64,000 nt of DNA from Brevundimonas sp. GTDB taxonomy: Bacteria; Pseudomonadota; Alphaproteobacteria; Caulobacterales; Caulobacteraceae. The stretch covers positions 1-64,000 of the forward strand of contig NZ_SDZL01000021.1 of NCBI RefSeq assembly GCF_004210735.1, in the 5' to 3' direction. A model generated the notes under the pieces. It was not told the origin of the DNA, did not search any database, and saw only the letters and a list, made by a program, of their open reading frames with translations. The position numbers were made by a program, and so were the translations under genes. Positions 256 to 6,108 of this stretch are shown piece by piece (within the stretch, counting starts at the first letter, position 1; every line of letters begins with the position of its first letter).

Positions 256-840
256 ATGAAGGTCGTTTTGCTGGAACGCGTCGAGAACCTCGGCGCCATC
301 GGCGACGTCGTCACCGTCAAGGACGGCTTCGCCCGCAACTTCCTCCTGCCGCGCGACAAGGCGCGTCGGGCCACGGAAGCCAACCTGAAGGCCTTCGAAC
401 TCGACCGCGCCGCCATCGAGCAGCGTAACGAGAAGAACAAGGCCGAAGCCCAGAAGATCGCCGACAAGATCGACGGTCAGACCTACATCATGATCCGTCA
501 GGCTGGCGAAACCGGCCAACTGTACGGTTCGGTCGCCGCCCGCGACGTCGCCGAAGCCGTTCAGGCTGAAGGCGGCAAGATCGAGCGTTCGCAGGTCGTT
601 CTGAACACCGCGATCAAGACCCTGGGCGTCCACGAAGTGCCGGTTCGCCTGCACGCCGAGGTCTCCGCCAAGGTCAAGATCAACATCGCCCGCTCGGCCG
701 AAGAAGCCGAACGTCAGGCGAAGGGTGAAGACGTCATCCGTTCGCAGTTCGACGATGAGCGCCAGGCCGCCGAACAGGCCGCCCAGGAACTGATCGAAGG
801 CGGCGCCGGTCAACAGGAAGGCTTCGGCGACGAAGCCTGA
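256..840 (+). CDS. rplI: 50S ribosomal protein L9
   Basis: [36 protein letters not shown]... canonical L9 N-terminus; after rpsR. Confidence 0.97.
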
Positions 841-862: not shown

Positions 863-905
863 ATGGGCGGCGCAGGGCATGATCCTTGCGCCGCCCATCT
901 TTTTT
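863..905 (+). terminator. Rho-independent terminator after rplI
   Basis: Perfect 12-bp stem atgggcggcgca / tgcgccgcccat followed by ctttttt. Confidence 0.85.
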
Positions 906-950: not shown

Positions 951-1064
951 GGCTCATCGAGACCGGTTGAGGGAACAGGCCCTTGGACGCCGGGGCAACC
1001 TGCGGAACATCCGTAAGGTGCCAACTCCTTCGGGACCCCTCCCCGGGTCGCGGCAGATGAGAGG
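951..1064 (+). ncRNA. SAM-I (S-box) riboswitch
   Basis: P1 ctcatc(953-958)/gatgag(1056-1061); core elements gagggaacaggccc...cgccggggcaacct...aaggtgccaactcc match the S-box consensus order. Confidence 0.85.
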
Positions 1065-1134
1065 TGATCCGGCGCGACAGGCGTCGCCCCTCGAAATGTC
1101 ACCGAAGCGGTTCCCGATCGAGAGGGAGACGACG

Positions 1135-1233
1135 ATGCGTGACCATCAGCTTACCGAGTCCCTCCATACGTTCGACGTGACCGCCTGCGGCCTCATGCCT
1201 TGCGGCGGCGCACGATGTCTTTGCGCGGGCTGA
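1135..1233 (+). CDS. Cys-rich 32-aa micro-ORF / putative leader peptide
   Basis: ATG preceded by gagggaga SD; MRDHQLTESLHTFDVTACGLMPCGGARCLCAG*; lies between riboswitch and TonB receptor. Confidence 0.5.
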   Translation: MRDHQLTESLHTFDVTACGLMPCGGARCLCAG

Positions 1234-1321
1234 CCCGCGACTGACCCCGGCGGCTGACCGCCGACCTCCCGACACAATCAGGACCAGACCCACGCGGCCG
1301 AAAAGCCGTGCGCGGCCCCCT

Positions 1322-3820
1322 GTGTCCGAAATCATTCAAGAAACGATGGATCTCTCGATGACCTACAATTCCCGGACACCCCGGATCTTCAGGCACGCCC
1401 TGTTCCTGGCCGCCTCGGGGCCCGCTTTGCTGATCGCAGGCGCGGCTGTCGCGCAGACGGCGCCGCAGGACGAAACCACCAACATCGACGAAGTGGTCGT
1501 CACCGGCACCCGCGTGGCCGGCCGCTCGCGCCTGGACTCGATCGCGCCGGTCGACGTGGTCACGGCCGAGGCTTTGCAACAGCGCGGCTCGACCGAGTTG
1601 GCGACCCAGCTGGCGGCCAGCGTGCCGGCGCTGAACTTCCCACGCCCATCCGCCACCGACGGCACCGACTCCATCCGGCCCGCCACCCTGCGCGGCCAGG
1701 GCCCGGACCAGACGCTGGTGCTGGTCAACGGCGTGCGCCGGCACCCGACGGCGCTGGTGAACACCAACGGCTCGGTCGGGCGTGGCTCGGCGGCCGTGGA
1801 CCTGAACGCCATCCCCAGCACGGCGATCGAGCGGATTGAGGTGCTGCGGGACGGCGCCGCCGCCCAGTACGGCTCGGACGCCATCGCCGGGGTGCTGAAC
1901 CTGCGCCTGCGCGAAGCGGCCAGCGGCGGCGGGGCCAGCGTCACCTACGGCGCCAACGTCACCGACTTCACCGGCTTCTACGGCCGGGCGGACGAGATCA
2001 CCGATGGCGAGACCCTGACGGTCGCGGGCTGGCAGGGCTTTGCGCTGGGCGACGACGGTTTCCTGACCGCATCGGTCGAGTATCGCGACCGCGAGCGCAC
2101 CAACCGCAGCGACATCGACCCGCGCTTCACCCCCGCGCGGGTGCGGGGCGGTCAGGGCGACGCGCAGACCGAGGATCTGGCGGTCTATCTGAACGCCGGC
2201 AAGCCGCTGGGGAACGGCTGGGAGGCCTATGGCTGGGCCGGGTATCAGACGCGCGACGCCGCGGCCGCCGCCTTCTATCGGACGCCGACCGACAACGCCC
2301 AGAACCCGGACTATGGCGCCGGGCGGGTCTATCCGGACGGCTATCTGCCCCAGATCCTGACCGACACGACCGACTGGACCGCCGCGGCGGGCGTGCGGGG
2401 CCAGGCGGGCGGCTTCGACGTGGACGTCAACCTGGGCTACGGCCGGAACGAGATCAAGTTCGGGGCCGAGAACACGCTGAACCCGTCGCTGGGCCCGACG
2501 TCGCCGACCAGCTTCTACGCAGGGTCGCTGACCTATGACCAGCTGGTGCTGGGCATCGACGCCAGCCGCCAGTACGAGGTCGGTCTGGCCGGGCCGCTGA
2601 ACGTCGCCTTCGGCCTGGAGGCGCGTCAGGAAAGCTATCAGATCGGAGCTGGGGAACCGGGCTCGTATGAGCGCGGCAGCTTCCTGAACATCGGCGGAAC
2701 GGATCTGAACTGGGGCTCGCGAGGATTTACCGGCTTCACCCCCTCGAATGAGGTGGACGAGGACCGCAACAACGTCGGCGTCTATGTCGATCTGGAAGGT
2801 GAGATCTTCGAGAATTTCACCGCCTCGGCCGCCGTCCGCTACGAGAGCTATTCCGACTTCGGGGACAATGTCTCGGGCAAGGTCGCGGCGCGCTATGACT
2901 TCACGCCCGGCTTCGCCGTGCGGGGCGCGATCTCGAACGGCTTCCGGGCGCCCAGCCTGCAACAGCAGTATTTCACCCAGACGGCCATCCTCTACATCTC
3001 GAACGTGCCGTATGAGACCGGCACCTTCCCGTCCGTCAGCCCGGTGGGCCTGGCGCTGGGCGGGACGCCGCTGGAGGCCGAGAGCTCGACCAACTATTCG
3101 CTGGGCTTCGTCTGGCGAAAGGGCGCGTTCGAGCTGACGGCTGACGCCTATCGCATCGACATCAAGGACCGGATCATCCTGTCGGAGACCCTGACCGGCA
3201 GCGCGACGGCGGCGCCGGGCACAAACGCCCGCACCATCCTCGATCTGTTGCAACCGTATGGCGCCTCGGCCGCGCGCTTCTTCATCAACGGGGTCGATAC
3301 CGAAACGACGGGCCTGGACGTGGTGGCGCGCTATCGCGTGGTGTCCGAGGTCGGACGGCTGGACTTCACCCTGGCGGGCAACGTCAACGACTTCGACGTG
3401 ACCAGGACGCCCGAGACGCGATCGGGCGTCCTGCCGACGCCGGTGTCGCTGTTCGCGCGTCAGGCGACCCTGCGGTTCGAGGAAGGGACGCCGCCGTGGA
3501 AAGCCGTGTTCCAGACCGACTTCACGCGCGGCGCCGTGGGCGGCACCTTCCGGGTGACCGGCTATGGCGATGTGCTGGCGCCCGGCGCGACTGAAGCGAC
3601 CGACCTGACCATTGATGCGGCGGGCGTGGTGGACGTGGAGGCGCGCTACACACTGAGCGACCGGGTCACCCTGGCGGTCGGGGCGGACAATCTGCTGGAC
3701 CACTATCCGACGCAGATCCAGCGGGTGAACAACACCTCGGGCGCCTTCCCCTTCTCGAACTTCTCTCCCTATGGCTTCAACGGTCGGTATGTGTACGGCC
3801 GCATTGCGCTGAAGTGGTGA
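1322..3820 (+). CDS. TonB-dependent receptor (start may be 1346 or 1358)
   Basis: Signal peptide, TonB box-like DEVVVTGTR, plug domain LRGQGPDQTLVLVNGVRR / IERIEVLRDGAAAQYGSDAIAGVLN, C-terminal beta-strand ending in aromatic-rich ...RIALKW. Confidence 0.93.
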   Translation: MSEIIQETMDLSMTYNSRTPRIFRHALFLAASGPALLIAGAAVAQTAPQDETTNIDEVVVTGTRVAGRSRLDSIAPVDVVTAEALQQRGSTELATQLAASVPALNFPRPSATDGTDSIRPATLRGQGPDQTLVLVNGVRRHPTALVNTNGSVGRGSAAVDLNAIPSTAIERIEVLRDGAAAQYGSDAIAGVLNLRLREAASGGGASVTYGANVTDFTGFYGRADEITDGETLTVAGWQGFALGDDGFLTASVEYRDRERTNRSDIDPRFTPARVRGGQGDAQTEDLAVYLNAGKPLGNGWEAYGWAGYQTRDAAAAAFYRTPTDNAQNPDYGAGRVYPDGYLPQILTDTTDWTAAAGVRGQAGGFDVDVNLGYGRNEIKFGAENTLNPSLGPTSPTSFYAGSLTYDQLVLGIDASRQYEVGLAGPLNVAFGLEARQESYQIGAGEPGSYERGSFLNIGGTDLNWGSRGFTGFTPSNEVDEDRNNVGVYVDLEGEIFENFTASAAVRYESYSDFGDNVSGKVAARYDFTPGFAVRGAISNGFRAPSLQQQYFTQTAILYISNVPYETGTFPSVSPVGLALGGTPLEAESSTNYSLGFVWRKGAFELTADAYRIDIKDRIILSETLTGSATAAPGTNARTILDLLQPYGASAARFFINGVDTETTGLDVVARYRVVSEVGRLDFTLAGNVNDFDVTRTPETRSGVLPTPVSLFARQATLRFEEGTPPWKAVFQTDFTRGAVGGTFRVTGYGDVLAPGATEATDLTIDAAGVVDVEARYTLSDRVTLAVGADNLLDHYPTQIQRVNNTSGAFPFSNFSPYGFNGRYVYGRIALKW

Positions 3821-3917: not shown

Positions 3918-4286
3918 ATGAAAAAGACAACGTTGCTCCTGGCGCTGGCCGCCAGCCTGTGGGCCACGGCCGTCAGCGCCATGACGGTTCAGGAGTTCCT
4001 GACCACGGCGAACGGGATCCCGCGCAATCCGACCGCCCTGCTGCGGTCCGACACCCGGCGGCTGATGGACGAGGTGAAGCTGGCGTTCCGCACGGTGGGA
4101 GAGGAACAGGATGCGGCCAGGGCGGCGGGTCGTCGGCCGGCCACCTGCGTGCCGGACAGCAAGGTCCGGATCAGCCCGGACGACATCCTGAACCGCTTCA
4201 ACGCCATCCCGGCCGCGCGCCGCAACATCAGCGTCACCCAGGCGATCCGTGAATGGATGGCCGAGCGCTATCCCTGCCCGGCCTGA
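3918..4286 (+). CDS. Secreted Rap1a/Tai-like domain protein
   Basis: MKKTTLLLALAASLWATAVSA signal peptide; small protein with CVP...YPCPA cysteine pattern resembling the Rap1a/Tai family. Confidence 0.5.
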   Translation: MKKTTLLLALAASLWATAVSAMTVQEFLTTANGIPRNPTALLRSDTRRLMDEVKLAFRTVGEEQDAARAAGRRPATCVPDSKVRISPDDILNRFNAIPAARRNISVTQAIREWMAERYPCPA

Positions 4287-4608: not shown

Positions 4609-6108
4609 ATGAACGCCCTTGCCCCCCTGCCCTACGGATCGTCGCCGGACCCGGTGTCGATCGCCTCGATGCCGCACAATCTCGAGGCCGAGCAGGCCCT
4701 GTTGGGCGCCCTGATGTTCGACAACGCCGTGTTCGAGCGGCTGAGCGACCGTCTGCGGGGGTCGCATTTTTACGAGCCGTTCCACCAGCGCCTGTTCGAA
4801 GCGATCGAGGACCATATCCGCCAGGGCCTGCTGGCCGAGCCGACCATTCTGATGGAGCGTTTCAAGCCCGATCCGGCGTTCCAGGAGTTCGGGGGCCTGC
4901 GCTATCTGGCCGATCTGGTGGACCGCGCGCCGCCGGCAGCCAACGCCCCCGATTACGCCCGGGTCGTCTATGATCTGGCGCTGCGGCGCGACCTGATCCG
5001 CATCGGCGGCGAGATCATCAAGGAGGCGCCGAACCCCGAGACGCCCGCCGACGAACAGATCGAACAGGCCGAACAGACGCTGTATTCGCTGGCCGAGACG
5101 GGCAAGCCGTCGTCCGGTTTCGTCAGCTTCTCGGCCGCGCTGGCCGGCGCCGTCGAAATGGCGGGCGAGGCGTATCAGCGCGAGGGCAAGCTGGCCGGTC
5201 TGGCCACGCGGCTGGACGATCTGGACCAGAAGCTGGGTGGCCTGCACCCGTCGGACCTGCTGATCCTGGCCGGGCGTCCGTCGATGGGTAAGACGGCGCT
5301 GGCGACCAATATCGCCTTCAACGTGGCGCGCAACTATCGCTGGGAGCCGACGCCCGAGGGTCGCAAGACGGTCGATGGCGGGGTGGTCGCCTTCTACTCG
5401 CTGGAAATGAGCGCTGAACAGCTGGCCATGCGTATCCTGGCCGACGCGTCGGGCGTGTCGTCGGACAAGCTGCGCAAGGGCGAGATCGACGCCAGCGATT
5501 TCGGCCGCATCCGCGACGCCGCCATCGAGATCGGTGAGAGCCCGCTGTACATTGACGCCACCGGCGGCCTGTCCATCTCCAAGCTGGCGGCGCGGGCGCG
5601 GCGGCTGAAGCGGATGGAGCACGGGCTGGACCTGATCGTGGTCGATTACCTGCAACTGGTGACGACCGGCGAGAACAGCCAGAAGAACCGGGTGCAGGAG
5701 GTGTCCGAGATCACCGGCGGCCTGAAGGCGCTGGCCAAGGAGCTGAACGTGCCGATCATCGCCCTGTCGCAGCTGTCGCGTCAGGTCGAGCAGCGCGAGG
5801 ACAAGCGACCGCAACTGTCCGACCTGCGGGAATCCGGCTCGATCGAGCAGGACGCCGACTGCGTGATGTTCGTCTATCGCGAGAGCTATTATCTGGGCCG
5901 GGCCGAACCGCGCGAGGGCTCGGAAGAGCACCTGAAGTGGCAGGAAGACATGGACCGGCTGCAGCATCAGGCCGAGGTCGTGATCGGCAAACAGCGTCAC
6001 GGCCCCATCGGCATCGTCAAGCTGGCGTTCGACGCCAACACCACCCGCTTCGGCAACCTGGCCCATGACGGCCGCTATGGCGGCGCCTTTGCGGACATTC
6101 CGGAGTAG
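4609..6108 (+). CDS. dnaB: Replicative DNA helicase
   Basis: MPHNLEAEQALLGALM, Walker A GRPSMGKTALA, VDYLQLV, LSQLSRQVEQREDKRPQLSDLRESGSIEQDAD. Confidence 0.97.
   Translation: MNALAPLPYGSSPDPVSIASMPHNLEAEQALLGALMFDNAVFERLSDRLRGSHFYEPFHQRLFEAIEDHIRQGLLAEPTILMERFKPDPAFQEFGGLRYLADLVDRAPPAANAPDYARVVYDLALRRDLIRIGGEIIKEAPNPETPADEQIEQAEQTLYSLAETGKPSSGFVSFSAALAGAVEMAGEAYQREGKLAGLATRLDDLDQKLGGLHPSDLLILAGRPSMGKTALATNIAFNVARNYRWEPTPEGRKTVDGGVVAFYSLEMSAEQLAMRILADASGVSSDKLRKGEIDASDFGRIRDAAIEIGESPLYIDATGGLSISKLAARARRLKRMEHGLDLIVVDYLQLVTTGENSQKNRVQEVSEITGGLKALAKELNVPIIALSQLSRQVEQREDKRPQLSDLRESGSIEQDADCVMFVYRESYYLGRAEPREGSEEHLKWQEDMDRLQHQAEVVIGKQRHGPIGIVKLAFDANTTRFGNLAHDGRYGGAFADIPE

What the first reader, a model, noticed from the sequence alone, without database searches (positions are those of the whole stretch)
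951..1360. SAM-I riboswitch controlling a TonB-dependent receptor, inserted between rplI and dnaB
Seen: an S-box-like aptamer directly after the rplI terminator and upstream of a TonB receptor. Known: S-box RNAs normally control Met/SAM biosynthesis or inner-membrane Met transport. Inference: this outer-membrane receptor imports a methionine- or sulfur-related substrate (or its chelate), and the cassette splits the usual rpsR-rplI-dnaB neighbourhood.
Basis: partly seen in the sequence, partly recalled or inferred. Interest (0 to 1): 0.72.

Follow-up and report, generated by a model that had tools for sequence, protein, structure and literature searches.

The report
SAM-riboswitch leader of outer-membrane receptor
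In this Brevundimonas genome a genuine S-adenosylmethionine-sensing RNA, followed by a tiny conserved gene ending in an arginine-cysteine codon pair, precedes an outer-membrane uptake receptor, which suggests that the bacterium turns on import of an outside sulfur compound when its internal sulfur supply runs low.

Summary
Rfam RF00162 (SAM-I) matches window 951-1063 + full length at 73 bits, E 3.4e-15. It lies between the rplI terminator and a TonB-dependent receptor (TBDR, about 1358-3820).

The "inserted cassette" reading is wrong. rplI-TBDR-dnaB is the usual arrangement in Caulobacteraceae. The riboswitch is the variable part: it precedes this receptor in 10 of 131 Brevundimonas genomes, under two receptor types only about 55% identical, while leaders from the two types can be over 90% identical.

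Its Shine-Dalgarno, not the receptor's, lies just after the aptamer. Related uORFs ending in Arg-Cys, always written CGA-TGT, precede at least 28 other Brevundimonas receptors of this family, most without the riboswitch.

The sulfur link is supported by an independent line. Relatives in another family sit beside gamma-glutamyltransferase, and one paralogue beside a membrane dipeptidase and a cysteine-synthase-like enzyme. That favours glutathione or cysteinyl peptides over methionine.

Best model: SAM represses the uORF, and uORF translation gates an organosulfur receptor. SAM binding, direction of switching, the uORF-to-receptor step and the substrate are inferred, not shown.

The parts
256..840 (+). 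rplI (50S ribosomal protein L9), upstream neighbour
   Evidence: TIGR00158 143 bits, above its cut-off
863..898 (+). rplI intrinsic-terminator-like stem-loop, T run follows
   Evidence: 15-pair stem followed by CTTTTTTG
951..1063 (+). SAM-I (S-box) riboswitch aptamer, full length; P1 strands 953-958 (CTCATC) and 1056-1061 (GATGAG)
   Evidence: RF00162 73.0 bits, E 3.4e-15, positions 1-108/108
1053..1100 (+). alternative (anti-P1) hairpin region: the P1 3' strand and the bases after it can pair with downstream CCCCTC (1087-1092)
   Evidence: conserved across the SAM-I+ leaders; weakest in the window itself
1111..1130 (+). hairpin TTCCC/GGGAG that includes the uORF Shine-Dalgarno (GGGAG 1124-1128)
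   Evidence: 96% of cells paired in 9 leaders, one pair with changes on both sides
1135..1233 (+). uORF, MRDHQLTESLHTFDVTACGLMPCGGARCLCAG, 32 codons; CGA-TGT (Arg27-Cys28) at 1213-1218
   Evidence: only ORF of this kind in 128 kb of window strands; homologues in front of related receptors
1358..3820 (+). TonB-dependent receptor (start could be 1346)
   Evidence: PF00593 138.6 bits and PF07715 74.6 bits; no NCBIfam receptor equivalog reached
3918..4286 (+). small predicted exported protein, no Pfam or NCBIfam hit, conserved between TBDR and dnaB in Brevundimonas
4609..6108 (+). dnaB, downstream neighbour
   Evidence: NF006606 716 bits, above its cut-off

Best explanation
A SAM-I riboswitch represses translation of a short upstream ORF when SAM is plentiful. 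That uORF ends in a conserved Arg(CGA)-Cys(TGT) pair a few codons before its stop, and its translation or stalling sets expression of the TonB-dependent receptor downstream, probably by coupling or by Rho-type attenuation, since no intrinsic terminator or conserved attenuator was found. The receptor imports an organic sulfur compound, most likely glutathione or a gamma-glutamyl or cysteinyl peptide, for periplasmic breakdown. Shown: SAM-I aptamer, uORF conservation and specificity, conserved alternative pairing, receptor family, sulfur-enzyme context of relatives. Inferred: SAM binding, OFF direction, uORF control of the receptor, substrate.
For: SAM-I: full-length match, 73 bits. The same pair in 9 further Brevundimonas genomes at 72-80 bits. 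Nearly all other SAM-I of the genus are single copies per genome; those examined lie upstream of metX or other methionine genes. The P1 3' strand has a conserved competing partner, and the next hairpin holds the uORF Shine-Dalgarno; 92% of cells pair, against 44-59% when partners are slid by 1-3 columns. uORF: 29 of 73 leaders have an SD+ATG ORF ending in RC plus 0-6 residues, all with CGATGT, against a mean of 0.4 and a maximum of 3 in 200 shuffles. In 2.1 Mb of strands around related receptors, 22 of 23 such ORFs lie directly upstream of the receptor. One uORF subgroup changes mostly at third codon positions (11 against 3 and 3). Sulfur: 8 loci of one other family carry gamma-glutamyltransferase beside the receptor, most with LysR and several with an S58 peptidase; the paralogue in L113 sits beside an M19 dipeptidase, LysR and a PALP enzyme. 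Own genome has a gamma-glutamyltransferase with a lipoprotein-like signal and no PF01507 (CysH/CysD) match.
Against: Folding does not settle the direction: opening the uORF start region costs -1.0 to +5.4 kcal/mol more with P1 than without, and -0.8 for the window. Covariation is thin (2 pairs changed on both sides; 12 of 500 shuffles as high on the covariation score). The window has lost part of the anti-P1 pairing. G203 carries SAM-I but no recognisable RC uORF. No conserved attenuator follows the uORF (z -2.3 to +1.5). The gamma-glutamyltransferase clusters belong to a separate receptor clade at 47-52% identity. SAM-I presence does not track loss of PF01507: 7 of the 10 SAM-I+ genomes keep it.
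Confidence: 0.45

Rival explanations
1. The SAM-I riboswitch controls the receptor directly (translation or termination over the whole leader), and the uORF is incidental or merely protects the RNA.
For: Simplest S-box reading. In six SAM-I+ leaders a second CTCATCGAGA, identical to the P1 5' strand, lies just upstream of the receptor start and could pair with the P1 3' strand.
Against: The aptamer ends about 295 nt before the receptor start; the conserved switching elements surround the uORF start. RC uORFs are kept in front of receptors without a riboswitch. The second CTCATC is absent in G000, G179, G186 and G203.
Confidence: 0.25
2. The receptor is a vitamin B12 transporter, SAM-regulated because methionine synthase MetH needs B12, as MetJ regulates btuB in Gammaproteobacteria.
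For: The genome has MetH. btuB is a core member of MetJ regulons (PMC4239095). BtuB models match, though far below their cut-offs (88 bits against 599.7).
Against: The genome has a separate TBDR of BtuB type directly downstream of its only cobalamin riboswitch. The window receptor is 820 aa against about 614 for BtuB, and relatives lie next to thiol-peptide enzymes, not B12 genes.
Confidence: 0.07
3. The receptor takes up methionine, methionine sulfoxide or Met-rich peptides.
For: SAM-I usually governs Met/SAM genes and Met transport (PMC4239095); the other SAM-I of this genome precedes metX.
Against: No methionine-specific gene found beside any homologous receptor examined; sulfur neighbours are gamma-glutamyltransferase, M19 dipeptidase and a cysteine-synthase-like enzyme. 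Free methionine is small enough for porins (general knowledge).
Confidence: 0.18
4. The receptor is an iron-siderophore or haem receptor and the SAM link reflects general metabolic status.
For: Weak, fragmentary matches to FepA, CirA and hemin models and to PirA in the PDB.
Against: All scores far below curated cut-offs; matches centre on the plug shared by all TBDRs; no siderophore genes recognised in the neighbourhoods examined.
Confidence: 0.1

Closest known systems
SAM-I (S-box) riboswitch, Rfam RF00162
   Same: Full-length sequence and structure match above the gathering score
   Different: Target is an outer-membrane TBDR reached through a uORF rather than a Met/SAM biosynthesis gene or inner-membrane transporter
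CruR (DUF2946) uORF upstream of the TBDR bfrG in Bordetella pertussis (PMC9426467)
   Same: A uORF with cysteine precedes a TonB-dependent transporter and is thought to control it through translation
   Different: [quoted passage not shown] here 19-35 codons, no signal peptide evident, no CXXC or RAPP; ends in RC plus a few residues
Cysteine leader peptides upstream of cys operons in Actinobacteria (PMC1262725; Canestrari et al. 2020 cited in PMC13236596)
   Same: Short ORF with cysteine codons near its stop, in front of sulfur genes, without an obvious intrinsic terminator
   Different: Those have runs of cysteine codons; here usually one Cys in a fixed CGA-TGT pair; different phylum and gene
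MetJ-regulated btuB (PMC4239095)
   Same: SAM-dependent control of a TonB-dependent receptor
   Different: Protein repressor and B12 receptor; here riboswitch and a receptor outside the BtuB family cut-offs

Membership tests
SAM-I riboswitch (RF00162) | Covariance-model match above gathering score over the whole aptamer | tested here: met
   73.0 bits against 44.4, positions 1-108/108
SAM-I riboswitch (RF00162) | P1 helix with a mutually exclusive alternative (expression platform) | tested here: inconclusive
   anti-P1 pairing 88.9% of cells in 9 leaders, little covariation, partly lost in the window; energies do not give the direction
SAM-I riboswitch (RF00162) | Binds SAM and represses | not testable with these tools
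   needs in-line probing or a reporter fusion
TonB-dependent receptor | Plug and beta-barrel domains | tested here: met
   PF07715 74.6 bits, PF00593 138.6 bits
BtuB vitamin B12 receptor | TIGR01779/NF007926 above curated cut-off | tested here: not met
   88 against 599.7 bits and 83 against 836 bits
CruR/DUF2946 copper uORF | CXXC and C-terminal RAPP in an exported protein of about 145 aa | tested here: not met
   uORF sequences against description
Cysteine leader peptide attenuator | Short translated ORF with cysteine codons close to the stop upstream of a sulfur gene | tested here: inconclusive
   ORF and RC motif conserved; translation and cysteine response not tested
Cysteine leader peptide attenuator | Alternative terminator or antiterminator after the ORF | tested here: not met
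   no conserved structure; no terminator-like site between 898 and 4754. Rho-dependent termination not tested

The most novel reading that the evidence does not exclude
A two-input sulfur gate on one mRNA: a SAM-I riboswitch controls translation of an RC uORF that itself reads cysteine (or charged Cys/Arg tRNA) at a fixed CGA-TGT codon pair, and together they control a TonB-dependent importer of glutathione-type thiols. The RC uORFs would be an undescribed class of regulatory peptide in Brevundimonas.
Probability: 0.3. Interest if true: 0.78.

Novelty: new variant of a known kind. Interest (0 to 1): 0.6.

Why it matters
Most TBDRs have no known substrate. A riboswitch in front of one ties it to a metabolite, and the uORF and gene neighbours agree on sulfur, so substrate and regulation become directly testable. 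TBDR uptake of glutathione-type thiols was not found in the papers searched, nor a SAM riboswitch on a TBDR. A riboswitch acting on a leader peptide that in turn gates a receptor would join two control layers usually studied apart.

Tried and rejected
Insertion cassette between rplI and dnaB: rejected, the receptor is syntenic across Caulobacteraceae. Loss of sulfate assimilation as the reason for the riboswitch: own genome lacks PF01507, but 7 of 10 SAM-I+ genomes have it. B12 receptor: rejected on family scores and a separate TBDR under the cobalamin riboswitch. Classical attenuator after the uORF: no conserved structure. Folding to fix the switch direction: inconclusive. RC uORF in other genera: none in L121-L126 by the filter used, nor in L144-L179. 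SAM-I or other Rfam elements at the gamma-glutamyltransferase loci examined: none. Plasmid search: only a short aptamer match. Literature: no paper found linking SAM riboswitch, TBDR and Alphaproteobacteria in this way. Structure prediction was not run; the TBDR fold is not informative for substrate.

Full report
OBSERVATION. One Rfam family reaches its gathering score in the window: RF00162 SAM-I at 951-1063 on the + strand, full length, 73.0 bits, E 3.4e-15. It starts 53 nt after the rplI terminator-like stem (863-898). Downstream is a TonB-dependent receptor with plug and barrel domains, then a small predicted exported protein and dnaB. The genome (2.83 Mb, 165 contigs, 95.7% complete) holds one other SAM-I, upstream of a homoserine O-succinyltransferase MetX (391 bits against a cut-off of 296). 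Named relatives place the genus as Brevundimonas.

SYNTENY. The receptor is not an insertion peculiar to this genome. In Brevundimonas relatives and in other Caulobacteraceae genera the order rplI - TBDR - dnaB recurs. What varies is the riboswitch. Across 131 Brevundimonas genomes, 119 have a SAM-I, but only 10 have one directly upstream of this receptor: G000, G117, G167, G179, G186, G197, G203, G212, G215, G218. A tree of 79 receptors puts the SAM-I+ receptors in two groups about 55% identical to each other, mixed with SAM-I-less ones (quick tree). Yet leaders from the two groups are up to 92% identical from aptamer to uORF start (for example G197 against G167). The leader has therefore behaved as a unit while the receptor beneath it was exchanged, or the leader moved; which of the two is not shown.

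THE uORF. Between aptamer and receptor lies a 32-codon ORF (1135-1233) with a good Shine-Dalgarno (GGGAG 1124-1128). SAM-I+ relatives have ORFs at the same place ending in, for example, RCTGPMRCRRSL. Leaders without a riboswitch also have uORFs, with unrelated N-termini, ending in RC plus a few residues: MRMRFYADIHRPVLRPARCPARR, MSKRLQGAVFLTPRPRCRP, MSKVLTQAGPYRRGGRCSG, MKITTNIMAMPPAIARCCG. With one fixed definition (SD, ATG, 10-45 codons, ending RC plus 0-6 residues), 29 of 73 leaders qualify, against a mean of 0.44 and a maximum of 3 in 200 shuffles, and all 29 write the pair as CGA-TGT; CGA is 12 of 269 Arg codons and TGT 6 of 21 Cys codons in nine window genes. In 128 kb of window strands the only such ORF is this one; in 2.1 Mb of strands around related receptors 22 of 23 lie directly upstream of the receptor. 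The definition was set after seeing the first examples, and many leaders are related, so the shuffle comparison overstates independence; the recurrence with unrelated N-termini is the stronger point. In one subgroup variable sites fall mostly in third codon positions (3, 3, 11), in another they do not (6, 8, 5), so translation is likely but not proven.

THE SWITCH. In nine SAM-I+ leaders the P1 3' strand can pair instead with a downstream segment (anti-P1), and a second hairpin holds the uORF Shine-Dalgarno. Together 91.7% of cells pair, against 44-59% for slid versions, with changes on both sides at two pairs. This fits a translational switch on the uORF. It is not decisive: covariation is small, the window has lost part of the anti-P1 pairing, and opening the uORF start region costs between -1.0 and +5.4 kcal/mol more with P1 formed (window -0.8). 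Repression by SAM is assumed from the known behaviour of SAM-I.

FROM uORF TO RECEPTOR. No intrinsic terminator and no conserved fold follows the uORF. Translational coupling or Rho-dependent attenuation is therefore inferred. Documented parallels are CruR, a copper-sensing uORF acting through Rho in front of the TBDR bfrG, and cysteine leader peptides of actinobacterial cys operons, which also lack terminators. The present uORFs are neither by their defining motifs.

SUBSTRATE. No NCBIfam receptor equivalog is reached and the nearest PDB chains match mainly the plug. Neighbour genes give the best clue. In one other family of the order, 8 loci have gamma-glutamyltransferase (PF01019) beside the homologous receptor, most with a LysR regulator and several with an S58 peptidase. 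A Brevundimonas paralogue (L113, 62% identical) sits beside an M19 dipeptidase, a LysR regulator and a PALP-family enzyme resembling cysteine synthase. This is the enzyme set expected for breaking down glutathione via Cys-Gly to cysteine. The own genome has a gamma-glutamyltransferase with a lipoprotein-like signal and no PF01507 protein (CysH/CysD) although all 14 control genomes do, so it may depend on reduced sulfur. That absence does not follow the riboswitch across the genus, and the gamma-glutamyltransferase clusters belong to a separate receptor clade. A sulfur compound is therefore likely (about 0.7 in my judgement), glutathione-type less so (about 0.35).

KNOWN OR NEW. The aptamer is an ordinary SAM-I. 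Its place, through a uORF to a TBDR, was not found in the papers searched. Leyn et al. 2014 report SAH, SAM-alpha and SAM_SAH riboswitches in Proteobacteria, and list btuB as a MetJ target. I rate it a new variant of a known kind.

Noticed in passing
L093 2031-4532 and L097 8527-11046: dnaB in G179 and G218 is split by about 1 kb with overlapping match ends, as an intein or other insertion in the helicase domain would give.
   Followed up: no
window 3918-4286: Small predicted exported protein without Pfam or NCBIfam hit, conserved and sometimes duplicated between the TBDR and dnaB in Brevundimonas.
   Followed up: partly
SAM-I+ leaders, e.g. L095 and L096 just upstream of the TBDR start: A second copy of CTCATCGAGA, identical to the P1 5' strand, lies near the receptor start in six of ten SAM-I+ leaders, absent in the window. 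Purpose unknown.
   Followed up: partly
L112, L108 and L256: Some genomes have two tandem TBDRs between rplI and dnaB; an RC uORF (MKITPRFTATPPAIARCCG) lies between the two in G132.
   Followed up: partly
L257: The only cobalamin riboswitch of the genome precedes a BtuB-like TBDR.
   Followed up: yes
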